IMG/VR virus record: IMGVR_UViG_3300042691_042257
Coordinates: 1-22,074 of that record
Direction: 5' to 3' (one strand)
Length of the DNA: 22,074 bases
Origin: a virus
Below, piece by piece: positions 886 to 16,542 of this stretch. The translations under genes and the position numbers were made by a program. The notes under the pieces are model-generated. The model did not search any database. It was not told the origin of the DNA and saw nothing but the letters and a program-made list of their open reading frames with translations. Positions within the stretch are counted from its first letter, which is position 1. Each line of letters starts with the position of its first letter.

Positions 886-1470
886 TCAGCGAGGGAGGGC
901 GGCGAGTTGGGATTGGAGGCGGAGCAGTTCGGATTCCTTGGCGGTGATGGCGGCCTGGACTTCGGCGCGGCGCTTGGCGCGCTCGGCGGGGGCGAGGCGG
1001 ACGCCGCTGGACTGGCTGGCCCACGACTGCTCTTCCAGATTGGCCTTGGTGCGCCATTCGTTGAGGACGCGCTTGGCATCGTCGATCTGGCTTTCGAGGG
1101 CGGCGCGGCGGACGCGAAGGGCCGCGGCCTCGGTGCCGGGATCGACAACCGGGGCCGCGGCGGGTGCGGGACGCGTCGGGGCGGGGATGGAAGGGGCGAC
1201 GGAAGGCTGGGGCGCGGCGGTGGGGATGGCATCGAGGCGGGCTTCGAGTTCGTCGATGAGCTTGGTGAGGCCGTCCATTTCGCGCTGGGCGGATTCCAGC
1301 TCGGCGAGGGTGGTCTCGTATTCGTGTTCCAGCGGTTCGAGCCGGGCGAGGTGGGCGGTCTTGAGGGCGGTGATCTCGGCGTCGTGGGTGGCGCGGAGTT
1401 GGCGGATCTGGCCCAGGTGCCAGACGTAGGAGGCGACGGCGAGGACGAGGATGACGATGGCGGATTTCAT
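886..1470 (-). CDS. Membrane-anchored coiled-coil protein, function unknown
   Basis: A 194-residue protein. Residues 2-17 form an uncleaved signal-anchor type hydrophobic helix (SAIVILVLAVASYVW). Residues 20-82 are a charged, Leu/Glu-rich coiled coil. Residues 83-112 are a Pro/Ala-rich linker, and 113-194 form a second coiled coil ending in LRLQSQLAALPR. This one-TM plus periplasmic-coil layout resembles inner-membrane spanins in outline only; no lipoprotein partner gene is embedded in or beside it, and it lies in the leftward arm, far from the lysis genes. It is preceded by a 75-bp spacer containing a copy of the 38-bp control element shared with the rightward arm, so it may be switched together with the rightward genes. 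Function not recognised. Confidence 0.65.
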   Translation of the reverse strand: MKSAIVILVLAVASYVWHLGQIRQLRATHDAEITALKTAHLARLEPLEHEYETTLAELESAQREMDGLTKLIDELEARLDAIPTAAPQPSVAPSIPAPTRPAPAAAPVVDPGTEAAALRVRRAALESQIDDAKRVLNEWRTKANLEEQSWASQSSGVRLAPAERAKRRAEVQAAITAKESELLRLQSQLAALPR

Positions 1471-1503
1471 GAGGCGATGTGGTTGGTTTGGGTTTGGGGA
1501 GAA

Positions 1504-1541
1504 TGTTCTACTCGCGTAGAGAAATTGTCAGTTTGAACAGG
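1504..1541 (-). promoter_or_regulatory. Copy of the 38-bp control element, leftward orientation
   Basis: Read on the minus strand, this stretch matches 2233-2270 of the plus strand at 34 of 38 bases, including 25 identical bases in a row (1504-1528 against 2246-2270). It contains a palindromic core TCTAC-N4-GTAGA (1507-1520) and a degraded LexA-type site, TGTTC-N4-TGACA (1526-1539), with one half-site intact and two mismatches in the other. It ends 34 bases upstream of the minus-strand gene that starts at 1470. A CTGACA and a GAACAT flanking 17 bases could serve as weak -35 and -10 boxes, with the palindrome in the spacer. Confidence 0.65.
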
Positions 1542-1545
1542 TTGG

Positions 1546-1767
1546 TTAGTTCTGGCCAATGCCGGATTCCTGGTCGGCGAGGAGGCCTTCGACGGCGAGG
1601 CGGTCGATGAGAGACTTGCTGACGCGGTCGCCGCGAAGGACGTAGAAAAGGTGGGGCTTGGTGCAGCCCACGACGGCCGCGGCTCGGCCGTAACTGACGC
1701 CATCACGGAGACGGTGGGGCGGCTCGGGGGTCCGATTCATCTTGCCTTTTGGGCGGATTTCTGTCAT
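1546..1767 (-). CDS. Small Cro/Ner-like helix-turn-helix protein
   Basis: A 73-residue protein. Residues 25-45 (SYGRAAAVVGCTKPHLFYVL) form a helix-turn-helix: a small-residue helix, a VGC turn and a recognition helix ending in the FYVLRGDR run typical of Cro-like proteins. The N-terminal 20 residues are basic and proline-rich; a second ATG at 1740 would shorten the protein to 64 residues without touching the HTH. It is the first gene of the leftward arm and is divergent from the XRE repressor across a spacer with four operator-like palindromes. That is the standard position of a lambda Cro or Mu Ner protein, which shuts down the opposing promoter during lytic growth. The role is inferred from fold and position. 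Confidence 0.7.
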   Translation of the reverse strand: MTEIRPKGKMNRTPEPPHRLRDGVSYGRAAAVVGCTKPHLFYVLRGDRVSKSLIDRLAVEGLLADQESGIGQN

Positions 1768-1801: not shown

Positions 1802-1892
1802 TTTCCAGATCTGGAAACCGTTACTAGGAACGGTCCAGATTTGTAACTGTTCCACGTTTGGAACGCAACAATTATTTTTCCGAAAATGGAAA
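1802..1892. promoter_or_regulatory. Divergent operator array with four 16-bp palindromes
   Basis: The spacer between the two divergent HTH genes holds four related 16-bp inverted repeats of the form (G/T)(T/G)TCC-N6-(G/T)(G/T)AA(C/A): 1802-1817 (TTTCCAGATCTGGAAA, perfect), 1832-1847 (GGTCCAGATTTGTAAC, weaker), 1849-1864 (GTTCCACGTTTGGAAC) and 1877-1892 (TTTCCGAAAATGGAAA). The last one contains the repressor start codon at 1886. A further 6-bp inverted repeat, ACCGTT/AACGGT, lies at 1817-1834. A possible leftward promoter, TTGCGT (1868-1863) and TACAAA (1845-1840) with a 17-base spacer, would be covered by sites 2 and 3; this promoter call is tentative. Confidence 0.7.
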
Positions 1893-2227
1893 TTTGTCCC
1901 GAAAAGGTCGGTCAGAGGCTCCGTCAATGTGCGGAGTCTCGTGGGCTGTCGCAGACGGAGGTCTGCCGCCTGACTGGCTTTGCCACCGGGACGATGTCGC
2001 GGTATTTCAACGGAGCGTCTCTCCCGAAAAGCCAAGAGCTGCTGGAGCTCGCTAAGTTCTTCGAGGTCTCGATGGAGTGGCTTCTGACGGGAGAATCGCG
2101 GGATCCGGGGGTGCTTCGCGTGCGGGAGGATGCCGTGGCCTACGACGTGCAAAAGCGGAGAACGCTGGAGACGGCCGCGAAGGAGCTGGAGGAGATTGTG
2201 AAAACGCTTCGGGAGATGGACTGCTGA
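1886..2227 (+). CDS. XRE-family phage repressor (CI/C-like), no peptidase domain
   Basis: A 113-residue protein. Residues 7-66 are a full HTH_3/XRE domain: VGQRLRQCAESRGLSQTEVC, then a recognition helix around residues 34-44 (TGTMSRYFNG), then the SLPKSQELLELAKFFEVSMEWLLTG continuation that is highly typical of this family. Residues 86-111 form a short charged helix suited to dimerisation. Self-cleaving repressors are about 200-240 residues with an S24 peptidase domain; that domain is absent here, so RecA-stimulated autocleavage is not possible. The ATG lies inside the fourth operator-like palindrome and has no Shine-Dalgarno sequence, which suggests autoregulation by occlusion of its own start region. 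Likely the lysogeny repressor acting on the divergent array. Confidence 0.8.
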   Translation: MEICPEKVGQRLRQCAESRGLSQTEVCRLTGFATGTMSRYFNGASLPKSQELLELAKFFEVSMEWLLTGESRDPGVLRVREDAVAYDVQKRRTLETAAKELEEIVKTLREMDC

Positions 2228-2232
2228 TCGCG

Positions 2233-2270
2233 CCTGTTCCAATGAACAATTTCTCTACGCGAGTAGAACA
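2233..2270 (+). promoter_or_regulatory. 38-bp control element, rightward orientation
   Basis: This block begins six bases after the repressor stop codon and combines an exact LexA-type box (2235-2248) with the palindrome TCTACGCGAGTAGA (2254-2267). It is the plus-strand partner of the minus-strand copy at 1504-1541 (34/38 identical). The next plus-strand gene starts at 2344. The conservation of the whole block, rather than only the palindrome, suggests a shared promoter-operator unit. Confidence 0.65.
2235..2248. promoter_or_regulatory. LexA box, Verrucomicrobia type (TGTTC-N4-GAACA)
   Basis: The sequence TGTTCCAATGAACA is an exact match to TGTTC-N4-GAACA, which I recall as the published 14-bp LexA-binding motif of Verrucomicrobia. 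It lies between the end of the repressor gene and the first rightward gene, placed to repress a rightward promoter until DNA damage inactivates LexA. The match is seen directly; the binding is inferred. Confidence 0.65.
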
Positions 2271-2292
2271 ATCGCGATGTAGGAACGCAAGC

Positions 2293-2306
2293 TCTACGCG
2301 CGTAGA
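2293..2306. promoter_or_regulatory. Third CTAC-type palindrome, operator-like
   Basis: TCTACGCGCGTAGA is a perfect 14-bp palindrome and a third copy of the core found at 1507-1520 and 2254-2267, followed by the same AAC. Its centre is 39 bp from that of the second copy. It lacks the LexA-type half of the 38-bp element. Two copies in tandem before the rightward genes and one before a leftward gene suggest a dedicated regulator other than the XRE repressor, whose putative sites have a different sequence. Confidence 0.6.
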
Positions 2307-2343
2307 ACTTGCTCCCCCTCCCCCATCCTGCTAAGATCGCGCC

Positions 2344-2517
2344 ATGTTCCTCGGCATCCCCAAACAAGCTTGGTTGGTCTTCGGAATCTTGGCGGCCTTT
2401 ATCGGCGGCATGTTTCTCTGGGCGGTGTGGAACGTGGAGCGCAGCAACGCGAACCTTCGCAAGGAGCGGGAACGGGGTTGGGACGGCAGTTATCTCTACG
2501 GCGATCCGAAAAAGTGA
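2344..2517 (+). CDS. 57-aa single-pass membrane protein
   Basis: A 57-residue protein, MFLGIPKQAW at its start. Residues 10-30 form one hydrophobic helix (WLVFGILAAFIGGMFLWAVW), followed by a positively charged stretch with RKERER and a short polar tail ending YGDPKK. It is the first gene downstream of the LexA box and the CTAC palindromes, so it should be the first product of the rightward transcript. Size and topology would suit a small holin-like or regulatory membrane peptide, but no family is recognised and the true function is unknown. The frame is closed by a TGA at 2515-2517. Confidence 0.55.
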   Translation: MFLGIPKQAWLVFGILAAFIGGMFLWAVWNVERSNANLRKERERGWDGSYLYGDPKK

Positions 2518-2566
2518 CGGCTCTTTTGACGCTTGACGCGTGGAAAGGCGCGGCAATCGTTTGAAC

Positions 2567-2896
2567 ATGGTCGGACCCGTTCAGGGGGATCTCTTTCGCG
2601 GGCTGCGGCTCCATACGGAGCCGTCGGGCAAACTGCGGCTGGAGGGCACGGTGAACCTCGCCGCGGCCTACACGGGTCTCTCGCGCCAACAGATCTACGA
2701 ATACATCGAGCAGGGCGAGATTACGGCCCGGTCGCCGGGGGAGGAAACAAAGTTGGCGCTGACGAAGGATGTGCGTGGACGGCGGCGCGGGTTCAAGAAA
2801 TTTCTGGACATGCGGGATGTGTTTCGCATCGCGTATGGGGAAGAGGAGGCGCGGAAGATGCTGAAGCAACTCGGGGTCGATCCTGGCTTGAATTGA
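2567..2896 (+). CDS. Helix-turn-helix (MerR/excisionase-like) DNA-binding protein
   Basis: A 109-residue protein from the ATG at 2567; a GTG at 2540 in the same frame would add nine residues. Residues 28-55 (TVNLAAAYTGLSRQQIYEYI, then EQGEITAR) match the HTH_17/MerR-type fold of excisionases and phage activators: a short helix, AAAYTGLS turn, recognition helix with QQIYEYI, then the EQGEI wing. A basic segment GRRRGFKK follows at 71-78, then a helical C-terminus. It lies between the SOS-controlled promoter region and the lysis/late genes, so a role as late-gene activator, antirepressor or excisionase is plausible. It is the best candidate in this arm for a protein binding the CTAC palindromes, but nothing proves that. 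Confidence 0.7.
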   Translation: MVGPVQGDLFRGLRLHTEPSGKLRLEGTVNLAAAYTGLSRQQIYEYIEQGEITARSPGEETKLALTKDVRGRRRGFKKFLDMRDVFRIAYGEEEARKMLKQLGVDPGLN

Positions 2897-3617: not shown

Positions 3618-3814
3618 ACGAGGTCCTCTTCCTGACGGCGGGGCTGGGTGCTCTGGTGATCGCGTTCGCGGCGGGCTTCGTGACGCGATCGGGTCGCGAG
3701 CGGCGGCTGAATGAAGTGACGGAGCTGGCCTTCCAAGAACTGGCGCGGCGTGACGAGGAGGCGCGGCGGCGCATCTCGGCGCTGGAGCGCCAACTGCAAC
3801 TTTCCAACGAATGA
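3614..3814 (+). CDS. 66-aa one-TM coiled-coil lysis-cassette protein
   Basis: A 66-residue protein with a hydrophobic helix at residues 3-23 (EVLFLTAGLGALVIAFAAGF) and a strongly charged helix from 28 to 63 (RERRLNEVTELAFQELARRD and onward). Start and stop overlap the holin and the endolysin by four bases each, so the three are translationally coupled. The topology is that of an i-spanin-like or accessory holin protein, but it is much shorter than usual Rz proteins and no outer-membrane partner was found. I call it a lysis accessory protein by position. Confidence 0.6.
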   Translation: MNEVLFLTAGLGALVIAFAAGFVTRSGRERRLNEVTELAFQELARRDEEARRRISALERQLQLSNE

Positions 3815-5184
3815 GCGACGAACCCCAACAGGTGCTCGGGGAAATCCCGGGTCTGGTGGACTGGCTCCTGGCGGAGGCGGCCCGGCGCGATGCGCTGATC
3901 GCCTCGCTGATGGCGCGAGGCTACGGGGTCAGTGCGCCGAAGGCTAAAATTGTTGAGGCTGCTGAGGCGGTAGCCCAACCCAGGGAGAAAGCGGCCCCGG
4001 CCGTGGAGCCCGACGAGGTCGAGGCGGTTGCTGGTTCCTCCGCATCCCTCATCGCGGCGATGAAGCGGCTGGGGCATTCTCTCTTTGAAAGCGACGCGAA
4101 ACCCTACAATCTGAATATCGTGGCGGTGCGCGACACGTCGCCGACGCTGGACGCGTATGGATGCCGTCTTTATGTGCTGTGGCGCGAGGCGGGGAAATGG
4201 ATGTCGCGCGACTGGGCAATCACGACCTACCCGGGATCCCATTACCTGATCCGGCGTCTGCTGTCGCGCAAGGGCTGCGCAATCCTGAAGGAAGGCCAGT
4301 ATCGCGGGGCGTATGCGATCGATCTGCACCGCGAGCTGTATCGCGCCCTGTGCCAGCGGCTCGGGTCGGTGACGGTCTACCGGGACGGGAATCGGAACCG
4401 GACCTTTGATCTCGATCCGGCAAAGACGGAAACGGGCATGTTCGGAATCAACGTCCATGCGCCGGTGACGCTGGGCGCGGGGGTGAGGAACTACGTGGAC
4501 AACCTGGTGGACTCGTCGAGCGCGGGGTGTCTGGTCTTCCGCGCGGTGCGGGAGTTCGAGGAATTCATGGGGCTGGTGACTGAGGCGGCGAAACACTGGG
4601 GCAATGCCTTCACGCTGACGCTGATCAAGGACACGGATCTCGTCGCGCGGCCGGTGGAGACGAAGCCCTTCACGGTGGGGCCGGATGGGATCGCGCTGGT
4701 GAAACATTTCGAAGGATGCCTGGAGCCGGTCGGCAATGGCACGTTCAAGGCCTACGCGGATCCGGCCCACGGGTGGAACGTACCGACGATCGGCTGGGGC
4801 ACGATCGCCTACGAAGACGGGCGCAAGGTGCGGCGCGGCGATGTGATCACGCAGGACCGCGCCGATGAGCTGCTGGCGTGGGAGCTGAGCCAGAAGGCGG
4901 CGGAGGTGAAGCGGCTGGTGACGGTGCCGCTGAACCAAGGGCAATTCGATGCGCTGGTGTCGTTCGCCTACAATCTGGGCGGGGGCAATCTGCGGGAATC
5001 GACGCTGCTGCGGAAACTGAACGCGGGAGACGTCGTGGGCGCGGCGGAGGAATTCCCGAAGTGGAACAAGGCCGCGGGGCGCGAGCTGCTCGGCCTGACG
5101 CGGCGACGGATGAGCGAGCAACGGCTCTTTCGAGGAGAGCGGCCGTTCATCGTGACGCTCGATGAGGTGAAGCGGCTGGACTGA
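3811..5184 (+). CDS. Two-domain endolysin: H/C hydrolase-like domain plus GH24 lysozyme
   Basis: A 457-residue protein. Residues 288-457 are a phage lysozyme of family GH24: E301 in HFEG, D317 in YADP and T326 in PTIGWGT form the expected catalytic set, followed by PLNQGQFDALVSFAYNLGGG, a hallmark run. This domain cleaves the glycan backbone of peptidoglycan. Residues 95-275 are a second domain with GMFGINVHAP (H216) and SSSAGCLVF (C240). The H followed by S-x-GC resembles the active site of L,D-transpeptidase/YkuD-like and related phage proteins, so a second activity on the peptide or crosslink is possible. Residues 1-75 are a helical linker region. Most GH24 endolysins are 150-180 residues, so this one is unusually long. 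It is coupled to the holin cassette by an ATGA overlap. Confidence 0.85.
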   Translation: MSDEPQQVLGEIPGLVDWLLAEAARRDALIASLMARGYGVSAPKAKIVEAAEAVAQPREKAAPAVEPDEVEAVAGSSASLIAAMKRLGHSLFESDAKPYNLNIVAVRDTSPTLDAYGCRLYVLWREAGKWMSRDWAITTYPGSHYLIRRLLSRKGCAILKEGQYRGAYAIDLHRELYRALCQRLGSVTVYRDGNRNRTFDLDPAKTETGMFGINVHAPVTLGAGVRNYVDNLVDSSSAGCLVFRAVREFEEFMGLVTEAAKHWGNAFTLTLIKDTDLVARPVETKPFTVGPDGIALVKHFEGCLEPVGNGTFKAYADPAHGWNVPTIGWGTIAYEDGRKVRRGDVITQDRADELLAWELSQKAAEVKRLVTVPLNQGQFDALVSFAYNLGGGNLRESTLLRKLNAGDVVGAAEEFPKWNKAAGRELLGLTRRRMSEQRLFRGERPFIVTLDEVKRLD

Positions 5185-5250: not shown

Positions 5251-5253
5251 TTG

Positions 5254-5763
5254 ATGAACGACATCGCTCCCTCTCCCCAATCGGTCGCGGCCTGGAAGGC
5301 TCGCGCGGACAAGATCATCTCGATGAATGCGGCGATGGGGCTCGCCCAGGCGGAACTCGAGGCGAAGCTGAAACCGATCCGCGAGGCGCATGAGCCTGAG
5401 ATCGAGAAACTCAAGGCGGAGCTGAAGAAGCTGACGGCGGAGTTTGAGGCGTTCGGGATCGAGAACGCGGATGTCCTTTTTGCGGACGGGTCGGAGATCC
5501 GGACGAAGATCGCGGTGATCACGGGCAAGGTGAACCCGCCGTCGGTGGAGATGGGCGAGGGATGGACCGAGGCCGAGGTGATCGAAAAGCTCGAAGGCCA
5601 CAAACACACCCGCGGCTTTGTGGCGGTGAAGAAGTCTCTCGACAAGGCGGCGCTGAAGAAGGCGCTCAGCTCGGGCACGGTGATGATCTGCGACCTGCTG
5701 CTGCAATGCGGGGTCGGCTTGCGCCAGGGCTTTTCGGTGAAGGTGACGGGCAAGGGCGACTGA
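5254..5763 (+). CDS. Mu Gam-like DNA-end-binding protein (host nuclease inhibitor)
   Basis: A 169-residue protein. Residues 15-68 form a long helical arm (KARADKIISMNAAMGLAQAE through KLTAEFEAFG). Residues 75-137 follow the Mu Gam pattern: LFADGSEIRTKIAVITGKV, then PPSVEM, a WTEAEVIEKLE helix, FVAVKKSLDKAAL. Mu Gam protects linear phage DNA ends from RecBCD and is related to bacterial Ku. The similarity to Mu Gam in the TG-x-V...PPSV...K-x-x-x-K-x-A region is clear by eye. In Mu, gam is an early gene; here it lies between the endolysin and terminase genes on the rightward transcript. The start is the ATG at 5254 (an in-frame TTG precedes it). Confidence 0.75.
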   Translation: MNDIAPSPQSVAAWKARADKIISMNAAMGLAQAELEAKLKPIREAHEPEIEKLKAELKKLTAEFEAFGIENADVLFADGSEIRTKIAVITGKVNPPSVEMGEGWTEAEVIEKLEGHKHTRGFVAVKKSLDKAALKKALSSGTVMICDLLLQCGVGLRQGFSVKVTGKGD

Positions 5764-11150: not shown

Positions 11151-12662
11151 ATGAAACCCAACTCCATCGCCGCGCTTGACGCGGCTTCCCGTGATCGCCT
11201 GGCCAACGTGCGGAACTTCCGCCACGGCATCCTCGCGATCTGTGCCTTGTTCCTCCTCCTCCCCGTCATCGGATTGCTTTCGGCCTCGGCCTCGGTCAAT
11301 CCGGAGGCGGCCGGAGTCATGGCGGCCGGTCTGCCCTTCCTCGGGGCGATGACCTTCGGCCCGCTCCGCGACGAAACCAACGGCGACCCCGACGGGGCCG
11401 GGCTTGAGATGAAGATCCTCGAGGGGATCCGCGAGATCAAGACCGCTCACGAGAAGATCAACGGCCAGGTGGCCGAGATCCCTGAACTGAAGTCTGAGCT
11501 CGAAAAGATCGACAAGACGATCAAGAGCTTCGAGGGACTCAGCTCGGACGTGAAGGCGTTCCAGTCGCAGATGGCCAAGTATGAGGCCCGTCTCGCCGCG
11601 ATCCGCAAGGAGGAAAACGATCCGCTGAAGCGCATCACGAACGACGAGGAAATGCGGACGCTCGTCACCGCTCCCGCCCGCGTCGCCTACCTGCGGCACA
11701 ACAACAAGGTGGTGCCGAAGGAACTTCTCGACGCGGCGCAGCGATACGCCGAGATCGTGGAAGGCATGGCCTTGACCGGCGGTGCCACCCCCGGCTCGAT
11801 CGTGATCAACCAGGAACTCGTGAAGTCGATCTACCAGCTCGTGGCCAGTCACGGGAAGTGGAGCAACTTCGACGTGATCCCCGTCGGCACCCGGAACGTG
11901 AAGATCCCGGTGGACACCAGCGACCCGACCGCGGTCTGGGCGACGGAGGGCTCCGCCCCGTCCGAGGGCAGCTACGCGGGTAGCCAGGTCTCGCTCACCA
12001 TCGGCAAGATCCTCACCTGGATCGGGCTCAGCAACGACCTCCTCGAAGACGACGAGATTGGGCTGGCCAACCACCTGATGACGAAGTTCGCCCGGGCGAA
12101 CGCGCTGAAGCTGGACTTCTCCTGCTTCCGCGCGGACGGCGGCAGCGACACGACCGACGGCGGTTACACCGGGATCTTCGGCGGTGCGGGCACGGCCTAC
12201 GGCCTCGCCACCGGCGTGGACAACATCGCGGAACTGGACCAGGAGGACTTCACCGGCCTCATCGCCCAGTCCGACGACGCCCTCATCGGCCTCCCGTCGA
12301 GCCGGTGGTTCATGCACCCGCAGATCCTCGTGCAGCTCCTCGCGATCAAGGACCTCAGCGGTCGCTCGATCTTCCTCAACGCGCTGGAGGCTCCGACCGT
12401 CGGCGGGCTCGGCTCGATCCTCGGCTACCCGGTGATCACGTCGAACCAGTGCCCCAGCTCGGTGGCCGCCTCGACCGGCTTCCTCGCCTGGGGTGACGCC
12501 ATGGCGATGGCCGTCGGGGTTCGCACGGACTTCGAGATGGCCACCTCGACCGACGCGAAGTTCACCGAGGACCAGACCGTCTTCCGCTCCCGCATGCGTG
12601 CCGGCGTGAAGGTGAAGCTGGCCACGGCCTTCGAGGTGATGACCTTCGGCGCGGCCTCCTGA
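11151..12662 (+). CDS. Major capsid protein, HK97 fold, with hydrophobic N-terminus
   Basis: A 503-residue protein. Residues 86-155 form a coiled coil (KILEGIREIKTAHEKINGQV and onward), the delta/scaffold domain expected in HK97-type capsid precursors. From about 190 on the fold is typical: LVKSIYQLVASHGKWSNFDV, IPVDTSDPTAVWATEGSAPS, LLEDDEIGLANHLMTKFARA, FMHPQILVQLLAIKD, GSILGYPVITSNQCPS and the C-terminal FRSRMRAGVKVKLATAFEVM. Unusual is a hydrophobic segment at residues 26-45 (GILAICALFLLLPVIGLLSA) that looks like a membrane anchor or signal peptide. An ATG at 11409 would start just before the coiled coil and remove it, but the upstream codons are used like the rest of the gene. Cleavage by the neighbouring protease would also remove it. 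Confidence 0.85.
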   Translation: MKPNSIAALDAASRDRLANVRNFRHGILAICALFLLLPVIGLLSASASVNPEAAGVMAAGLPFLGAMTFGPLRDETNGDPDGAGLEMKILEGIREIKTAHEKINGQVAEIPELKSELEKIDKTIKSFEGLSSDVKAFQSQMAKYEARLAAIRKEENDPLKRITNDEEMRTLVTAPARVAYLRHNNKVVPKELLDAAQRYAEIVEGMALTGGATPGSIVINQELVKSIYQLVASHGKWSNFDVIPVGTRNVKIPVDTSDPTAVWATEGSAPSEGSYAGSQVSLTIGKILTWIGLSNDLLEDDEIGLANHLMTKFARANALKLDFSCFRADGGSDTTDGGYTGIFGGAGTAYGLATGVDNIAELDQEDFTGLIAQSDDALIGLPSSRWFMHPQILVQLLAIKDLSGRSIFLNALEAPTVGGLGSILGYPVITSNQCPSSVAASTGFLAWGDAMAMAVGVRTDFEMATSTDAKFTEDQTVFRSRMRAGVKVKLATAFEVMTFGAAS

Positions 12663-14069: not shown

Positions 14070-14794
14070 GCATCGCCGCGGACAACCTCCTGATCCGTGC
14101 GAAGACGGACGTCTACCATCGCCTCCTCGGCGACGAGGCGCTGGCGTCGGTCTCGGTGCTGCTTGACGACGAGCACAGCCCGGCGATGCGCGATCAGGTG
14201 AAGATGGGGCCGAAGAACCGCCGCGGCGGAAAGTCGGGGGCCTGCGTCATCGTGCGCGCCGTCGGCATCCTCGGGCTGGACAGCGGGGAGACGCCCACGC
14301 CCCTGATGCAGATGGCGATCGTTTGCGACGTGGTCGAGGACGTCCTCATCAACGCGGGCGCGGACGGCACGGGGTGGAATGCGGGCGAGATCGTCGCGCG
14401 CCTCGTGCAAACGCTGCACCAATCCCATTATGACGAGCGTTTCACGGGCCTGCGACTGAGCGCGAGCGCCCCCGTCGTGGAGCTGGAGGACGAGCAGCCC
14501 GGCCGCCGCGGCTTCATGGTGACTTTCGCAGCTAGCCAAATGCAGTTCGACGTCGTCGCGACGTGCCAGAGCGTCTCGATCGCGGACAGCTCGGGCACGA
14601 TCACCCTCACCTGTGGCACCTCGGGGGCCACGATCTACTACACCACCGACGGCAGCTACCCGGGGTCCGGGAATGCCGAGGCCACCGCCTACACGACGGC
14701 CTTCGAGGTGGACGCGGGCACCGTGATCCGGGCCGCCGCGGAAAAGACGGGGCTGAACCCCAGCAAATACATCGCCCAGGCAATCGCCACCTGA
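14066..14794 (+). CDS. Neck/tail terminator-like protein with chitobiase-type C-terminal domain
   Basis: A 242-residue protein. Residues 1-165 look like a tail-terminator or neck protein: an N-terminal helix, a strand GACVIVRAVGILG, a DVVEDVLINAG helix, and a strand VTFAASQMQFD at the end. Residues 169-240 match the CHB_HEX_C_1 domain found at the C-terminus of chitobiases and many surface proteins: SGTITLTCGTSGATIYYTTD, DGSYPGSG, then TAFEVDAGTVIRAAAEKTG. That domain is a small beta-sandwich, often a binding or spacer module. Its fusion to a neck protein suggests a decoration exposed outside the virion. It overlaps the previous gene (ATGA). The major tail protein follows after 33 bases. Confidence 0.7.
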   Translation: MSIAADNLLIRAKTDVYHRLLGDEALASVSVLLDDEHSPAMRDQVKMGPKNRRGGKSGACVIVRAVGILGLDSGETPTPLMQMAIVCDVVEDVLINAGADGTGWNAGEIVARLVQTLHQSHYDERFTGLRLSASAPVVELEDEQPGRRGFMVTFAASQMQFDVVATCQSVSIADSSGTITLTCGTSGATIYYTTDGSYPGSGNAEATAYTTAFEVDAGTVIRAAAEKTGLNPSKYIAQAIAT

Positions 14795-15810: not shown

Positions 15811-16542
15811 ATGAGGCTACTGACGACAGTGTTTCCAGCGGACCACGGGGGCGAGGATCTCGATCGCCTCGTGGCGGTGCTGGAGCATTCGGTGCGGCTT
15901 CATTCGCCGATGACGCCGCTGACGGTCCACCGGGAGCAGGCCAACACGGGCGGCGATTCGCGCGGGCGATGGCTCGCCAATGTGGCCGAGTGCAGCCGCC
16001 GCACCCGGATCTGGCGCGAGGCGGTCGATGCCCTTCCGGATGGCGAGGTGCTCGGCCTGATCGATGCGGACACCTGCGTCCTCGGCGACTTGACGGAGAT
16101 CGAGCTGCGGGCCTTCGACGTGGCCTACACGGTGCGGCCGAACTGGGCGCGCTATCCGCTCAATGGCGGCGTCGTCTTCGTCCGGGGCGGGGAGCGGGCG
16201 CGGCAGTTCTTCCGCGACTGGGTCGAGCTGGATGCTGAACTGCAACGCGGCGACGTGCCCGAGCTGCTCGACGCCTACGGGGCGATCGATCAGGCGGCGC
16301 TGAGTCATCTCGTGAACTTCTCCACGCAAAAGGCCCGCGTCATCGCCCTGCCCTGTGCGGTGTGGAATTGCGAAGACTCGACGTGGGCTCAGTTCAGCGA
16401 CCATACGAAGATCCTCCACATCAAGGGCAACCTCCGCCGCTGCTGCCTCGGCCATCGTGAGCCGGGCGAGACCTACGAGCGCGTCCACGCCGCCTGGGCC
16501 GCGGTCGAGCGCGATCTTTCCAACACCCTCCAACCCGCATGA
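15811..16542 (+). CDS. Glycosyltransferase-like protein (GT-A fold, DAD motif)
   Basis: A 243-residue protein resembling small nucleotide-diphospho-sugar transferases. Residues 77-94 (DGEVLGLIDADTCVLGDL) carry a D85-A-D87 motif that in GT-A enzymes binds the metal and sugar nucleotide. LNGGVVFVR (117-125) and IDQAAL (159-164) are the next hallmarks, as in GT8-like enzymes, and HIKG (203-206) near the end corresponds to the usual terminal H-x-x-G. There is no membrane segment. In the middle of tail genes it may glycosylate a tail protein, or modify host surface sugars; which one is not visible. It is coupled to the small membrane protein gene by an ATGA overlap. Confidence 0.7.
   Translation: MRLLTTVFPADHGGEDLDRLVAVLEHSVRLHSPMTPLTVHREQANTGGDSRGRWLANVAECSRRTRIWREAVDALPDGEVLGLIDADTCVLGDLTEIELRAFDVAYTVRPNWARYPLNGGVVFVRGGERARQFFRDWVELDAELQRGDVPELLDAYGAIDQAALSHLVNFSTQKARVIALPCAVWNCEDSTWAQFSDHTKILHIKGNLRRCCLGHREPGETYERVHAAWAAVERDLSNTLQPA

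What the first reader, a model, noticed from the sequence alone, without database searches (positions are those of the whole stretch)
2235..2248. Exact Verrucomicrobia-type LexA box next to a repressor that cannot self-cleave
TGTTCCAATGAACA fits TGTTC-N4-GAACA exactly, eight bases after the stop of a 113-aa repressor with no S24 peptidase domain. A temperate phage with a non-cleavable repressor needs another SOS input; a host LexA box controlling the rightward lysis/late arm would supply it, as LexA-controlled antirepressors do in coliphage 186 and some Salmonella prophages. It also points to a Verrucomicrobiota host.
Basis: partly seen in the sequence, partly recalled or inferred. Interest (0 to 1): 0.75.

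Follow-up and report, generated by a model that had tools for sequence, protein, structure and literature searches.

The report
LexA-type box inside duplicated phage promoter-operator
A virus of Verrucomicrobiota bacteria carries, beside its repressor gene, a perfect copy of its likely host's DNA-damage (LexA) switch site, but that site is one end of a control element the virus repeats at both of its outward-facing promoters, so it may be a damage sensor or only part of the virus's own switch.

Summary
In detail: TGTTCCAATGAACA is at 2235-2248, seven bases after a 113-aa HTH repressor without an S24 domain, with about 0.01 exact matches expected per window. Both copies hold the dyad CTCTACGCGnGTAGAAC, which occurs a third time at 2292. 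The region has seven 5-N4-5 dyads (0.38 expected), so the geometry is not special to LexA. The sister copy reads TGTTCAAACTGACA, not a full box. The host inference is supported: the terminase is 41-45% identical to prophages of one bacterial class in the phylum of a Lentisphaeria genome, against about 26% for annotated phages. In those genomes TGTTC-N4-GAACA precedes lexA, recA, dnaE2 and ssb. None of 26 relatives has an exact box upstream of terminase; several have their own, different dyads just after the repressor. Best reading: matched PL/PR promoter-operators around a non-cleavable repressor, with a host LexA site at PR that is plausible but unproven (about 50%). No antirepressor was identified.

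The parts
2235..2248 (+). TGTTCCAATGAACA, exact TGTTC-N4-GAACA (LexA-type box), outer part of the PR element
2233..2273 (+). PR copy of the 41-bp promoter-operator element
   Evidence: 36/41 identical, inverted, to 1501-1541
1501..1541 (-). PL copy of the 41-bp element; its box position reads TGTTCAAACTGACA (2 core mismatches)
1506..1521 (-). dyad CTCTACGCGAGTAGAA in PL (read on the minus strand)
2253..2268 (+). dyad CTCTACGCGAGTAGAA in PR
2292..2307 (+). third dyad CTCTACGCGCGTAGAA; centre of a 26-bp palindrome at 2287-2312
1803..1816 (.). TTCCAGATCTGGAA, second dyad family TTCCA-N4-TGGAA, in the hth73/repressor intergenic
1850..1863 (.). TTCCACGTTTGGAA, same family
1878..1891 (.). TTCCGAAAATGGAA, same family, 1 mismatch, overlaps the repressor start
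1546..1767 (-). 73-aa Cro-like HTH protein; homologues divergent from the repressor in relatives
1886..2227 (+). 113-aa Cro/CI-type HTH repressor without an S24 domain
886..1470 (-). 194-aa ORF, first gene after the PL element
   Evidence: only a weak hit
2344..2517 (+). 57-aa ORF with one apparent transmembrane stretch, first gene after the PR element
   Evidence: no family
2540..2896 (+). 118-aa HTH_17-like protein (below the Pfam cut-off)

Best explanation
The site is the outer part of a 41-bp promoter-operator that this transposable-type (Mu/B3-like) temperate phage carries twice, facing outward from its repressor module: PL at 1501-1541 before the leftward operon and PR at 2233-2273 before the rightward arm. 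A phage HTH regulator (the 113-aa repressor or the 73-aa Cro-like protein) most likely shuts both promoters by binding CTCTACGCGnGTAGAAC, which sits between the putative -35 (PL CTGACA, PR TGAACA) and -10. The other regulator most likely uses TTCCA-N4-TGGAA between the two regulator genes. The TGTTC-N4-GAACA palindrome overlaps the putative -35 of PR. The host clade uses this very motif for LexA, so about as likely as not host LexA is a second repressor of PR and gives the phage an SOS input without a cleavable repressor. Shown: the repeats, the dyads, the exact box, the motif in host-class genomes, the lack of conservation. Inferred: promoter positions, which protein binds which dyad, LexA binding.
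For: Inverted 41-bp repeat, 36/41, E 7e-12 (I1). Dyad CTCTACGCGnGTAGAAC three times, at PL and PR only (one shorter CTACnCGnGTAG match in coding DNA at 11972); in IMG/VR only the same virus has three copies. Seven 5-N4-5 dyads against 0.38 expected, 0 of 2000 shuffles as many. Relatives keep the divergent Cro-like/XRE pair, and some have their own dyads right after the repressor stop: L184 3x TGTCCACTGTGGACA, L141 CGTCACGGGTGACG, L188 TTCCCACTGTGGGAC. For LexA: exact box; host class; motif before lexA, recA, dnaE2, ssb; the two best windows of an 8-site host matrix in the 22 kb are PR and PL.
Against: The -10 hexamers are weak (3 of 6) and the consensus scan reports no promoter at PL or PR. 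Four of the five differences between the copies fall in the 14-bp box (Fisher p 0.04), so the box is the least conserved part of the element. PR flanks score below all eight host SOS sites (-7.4 against 1.5 to 16.5). No exact box upstream of terminase in 26 relatives, and 4 one-mismatch sites against 3.2 expected. Which protein binds which dyad is untested.
Confidence: 0.62

Rival explanations
1. Functional host LexA box at PR: LexA represses the rightward arm during lysogeny and SOS releases it, giving SOS inducibility without a cleavable repressor.
For: Exact match, 0.0005 expected in control intergenic DNA; host class fits; motif stands before lexA/recA/dnaE2/ssb there; PR has the palindrome where PL has a better -35 (CTGACA); precedents: LexA-controlled antirepressors of Gifsy phages and direct LexA control of GIL01.
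Against: Not conserved in relatives; sister copy degenerate; flanks unlike host sites; region rich in dyads of the same geometry; no antirepressor identified.
Confidence: 0.48
2. Chance: the palindrome is a phage-protein site, or promoter sequence, that happens to equal the LexA motif; host LexA plays no part.
For: Seven dyads of 5-N4-5 geometry in this region; an exact TGTTCN4GAACA also occurs inside a 1394-codon open frame in genome G092, so chance matches exist; least conserved part of the duplicated element.
Against: By my estimate only about 0.3-1% probability for this exact sequence given the number of dyads; the match is to the motif of the independently inferred host class.
Confidence: 0.48
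3. The 41-bp inverted repeats are recombination sites that let the repressor module (1501-2273) invert.
For: Inverted repeats flank the module at 691 bp distance.
Against: No recombinase seen among the window ORFs scanned; the 99.99% identical contig L003 has the same orientation; a third dyad copy lies outside the repeat.
Confidence: 0.04

Closest known systems
PL/PR operator pairs of lambdoid phages
   Same: Repressor gene lies between two outward promoters that share repeated dyad operators
   Different: Different repressor and operator sequences; second dyad family between the two regulator genes; a LexA-type palindrome at one promoter; Mu/B3-like virion genes
Gifsy-1/-3 prophages with LexA-controlled antirepressors (PMC3121763)
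   Same: Repressor not cleaved; a LexA-type box in the phage
   Different: Here the box is at the promoter next to the repressor, not at an antirepressor gene outside the immunity region; no antirepressor identified
GIL01, directly controlled by host LexA (PMC4551915)
   Same: Host LexA motif at a phage promoter
   Different: GIL01 relies on LexA with phage gp7; here a phage repressor and its own dyads are present
Mu/B3-like transposable siphophages (e.g. Sinorhizobium phage StopSmel)
   Same: Related terminase, portal and capsid genes, a Mu F-like domain and a Gam-like gene
   Different: Terminase only 26% identical; host class different; no transposase within this fragment

Membership tests
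Host LexA (SOS) box of Verrucomicrobiota | TGTTC-N4-GAACA core | tested here: met
   exact
Host LexA (SOS) box of Verrucomicrobiota | motif used at SOS genes of the inferred host class | tested here: met
   before lexA, recA, dnaE2, ssb
Host LexA (SOS) box of Verrucomicrobiota | flanks resemble host SOS sites | tested here: not met
   flank score -7.4 against 1.5 to 16.5 (only 8 sites, not a strict defining feature)
Host LexA (SOS) box of Verrucomicrobiota | conserved at this place in related phages | tested here: not met
   0 of 26 relatives; relatives are distant
Host LexA (SOS) box of Verrucomicrobiota | LexA binds, and transcription is damage-inducible | not testable with these tools
   needs EMSA and RT-qPCR
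LexA-controlled antirepressor system | repressor without S24 peptidase domain | tested here: met
LexA-controlled antirepressor system | antirepressor gene downstream of the box | tested here: inconclusive
   first genes are a 57-aa ORF with no family and an HTH_17-like protein; antirepressors are poorly conserved
PL/PR paired phage operators | same dyad repeated at two outward promoters flanking the repressor | tested here: met
   (the dyads and their places; promoter activity not tested)
Mu/B3-like transposable phage | DDE transposase A and B proteins | not tested
   none seen in the 22-kb fragment, which is incomplete; Gam, Mu F and terminase similarity only

The most novel reading that the evidence does not exclude
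A Verrucomicrobiota transposable-type phage has layered the host LexA site onto one copy (PR, weakly PL) of a duplicated promoter-operator, coupling lytic transcription directly to SOS without a cleavable repressor or an antirepressor. It would be an SOS-wired Mu-like phage in this phylum.
Probability: 0.3. Interest if true: 0.6.

Novelty: new variant of a known kind. Interest (0 to 1): 0.42.

Why it matters
Little is known here about how phages of Verrucomicrobiota are induced. If the box works, it is a compact way to make a phage with a non-cleavable repressor SOS-responsive, and it shows host LexA motifs being taken up inside a phage's own duplicated operators. If it does not, the case shows how dyad-rich phage control regions can mimic LexA boxes, a caution for box-based predictions of prophage induction such as PSOSP (PMC12527982).

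Tried and rejected
Repressor and portal searches of IMG/VR returned only the same virus (L002/L003, 99.99% identical), so no close relative informs the control region. A terminase alignment with distant phages gave only 23-29% relatives; an alignment with sibling prophages gave 21 better ones (40-47%). The dyad as a DNA pattern gave single scattered hits besides the same virus. An exact box 21 kb downstream of a sibling terminase in G092 lies inside a long coding frame and was set aside as chance. The box as an intrinsic terminator was rejected: weak stem, no T run, fold z -0.96. The paper defining the Verrucomicrobia LexA motif (Erill et al. 2016) is not held; it is known here only from a reference list and from memory, so the motif was tested directly in genomes.

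Full report
OBSERVATION. TGTTCCAATGAACA is at 2235-2248 and is the only match to TGTTC-N4-GAACA in the window at up to one mismatch. A first-order model gives 0.011 exact matches in 22 kb and 0.0005 in the 309 bp of control intergenic DNA. The 113-aa ORF at 1886-2227 has Cro/CI-type HTH domains only and no S24 peptidase.

The box is the outer part of a 41-bp element, CCTGTTCCAATGAACAATTTCTCTACGCGAGTAGAACAATC (2233-2273), which recurs inverted at 1501-1541 as CCTGTTCAAACTGACAATTTCTCTACGCGAGTAGAACATTC, 36/41 identical. The copies stand upstream of the leftward operon (ORF 886-1470) and of the rightward arm (ORF 2344-2517), with both regulator genes between them. The strictly kept core is the dyad CTCTACGCGnGTAGAAC, present a third time at 2292-2307 inside a 26-bp palindrome. 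A second dyad family, TTCCA-N4-TGGAA (1803, 1850; 1878 with one mismatch), fills the intergenic between the 73-aa HTH protein and the repressor. In all there are seven perfect 5-N4-5 dyads against 0.38 expected, and no shuffle of 2000 had as many. The 14-bp, 5-N4-5 shape of the box is therefore typical of this region and not diagnostic of LexA. Four of the five differences between the 41-bp copies fall in the box (Fisher p 0.04).

HOST. The window is an IMG/VR record without taxonomy. Its terminase is about 26% identical to annotated phages, the best being Mu/B3-like such as Sinorhizobium phage StopSmel. The only hit in the genome-contig scan is a Lentisphaeria genome (32%). In those host genomes exact TGTTC-N4-GAACA sites are few (1-7 per 4-6 Mb) and stand before lexA (G244, G092, G638), recA (G244, G638), dnaE2 (G216) and ssb (G638), identified by reading the encoded N-termini. 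The motif is thus the right one for this host class.

RELATIVES. An alignment of window and sibling terminases found 21 further IMG/VR relatives (40-47%). Profiles built from the two regulators show that many relatives keep a leftward Cro-like HTH gene divergent from a rightward XRE gene; Pfam found no S24 domain in the seven tested. None of 26 relatives with at least 4 kb upstream of terminase has an exact box, and one-mismatch sites are at chance level (4 against 3.2). Several instead have their own dyads directly after the repressor stop: L184 three copies of TGTCCACTGTGGACA plus three of GTGTCCACATTGAGACAC, L141 CGTCACGGGTGACG, L188 a 29-bp palindrome; others (C183, L142, L185, L199) show none there. 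What recurs at this place, where anything does, is a phage-specific dyad and not a LexA box. These relatives are distant, so absence of the box does not exclude a lineage-specific LexA site.

MECHANISM. The leader between the PL element and the ATG at 1470 is about 30 nt, so transcription probably starts near 1497 with -35 CTGACA (1531-1526) and -10 GAACAT (1508-1503), and the dyad CTCTACGCGAGTAGAA between and over them. PR would be the same with TGAACA (2243-2248) and GAACAA (2266-2271). These hexamers are weak and the consensus scan does not report them, so this is inference. A phage HTH protein binding the dyad would block both promoters. At PR the TGTTC-N4-GAACA palindrome overlaps the -35, where LexA would also block. 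An 8-site matrix from host SOS genes ranks PR first (12.2) and PL second (10.5) in the window, with the third at 6.0, although PR's flanks score below every training site; PL and PR are homologous, so their two ranks are not independent.

WEIGHING. For LexA: exactness, correct host motif, promoter position, precedents, and box-based surveys that find LexA-dependent prophages common in Gammaproteobacteria. Against: duplicated phage element, degenerate sister, dyad-rich surroundings, no conservation, unlike flanks, no antirepressor identified. I put LexA binding at about one half and SOS control of lytic growth at about 0.3.

Noticed in passing
L184 4675-4950: Relative with three 36-bp tandem units of TGTCCACTGTGGACA starting right at the repressor stop, then three 24-bp units of GTGTCCACATTGAGACAC: striking operator-like or iteron-like arrays.
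   Followed up: partly
window 2287-2312: 26-bp near-perfect palindrome GCAAGCTCTACGCGCGTAGAACTTGC; as RNA it folds far better than shuffles (z -3.9).
   Followed up: partly
window 14081-14791: Protein with C-terminal chitobiase/Fn3-associated domain (PF13290/PF13287) in the tail gene region.
   Followed up: no
window 15811-16542: 243-aa ORF resembling a glycosyltransferase by eye, within the tail region; no Pfam hit.
   Followed up: no
window 3811-5184: 457-aa endolysin: long N-terminal part similar to phrog_3000 fused to phage lysozyme.
   Followed up: no
window 5251-5763: Mu Gam-like protein next to the lysis genes and before terminase, in the rightward arm, unlike Mu where it is in the early region.
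   Followed up: no
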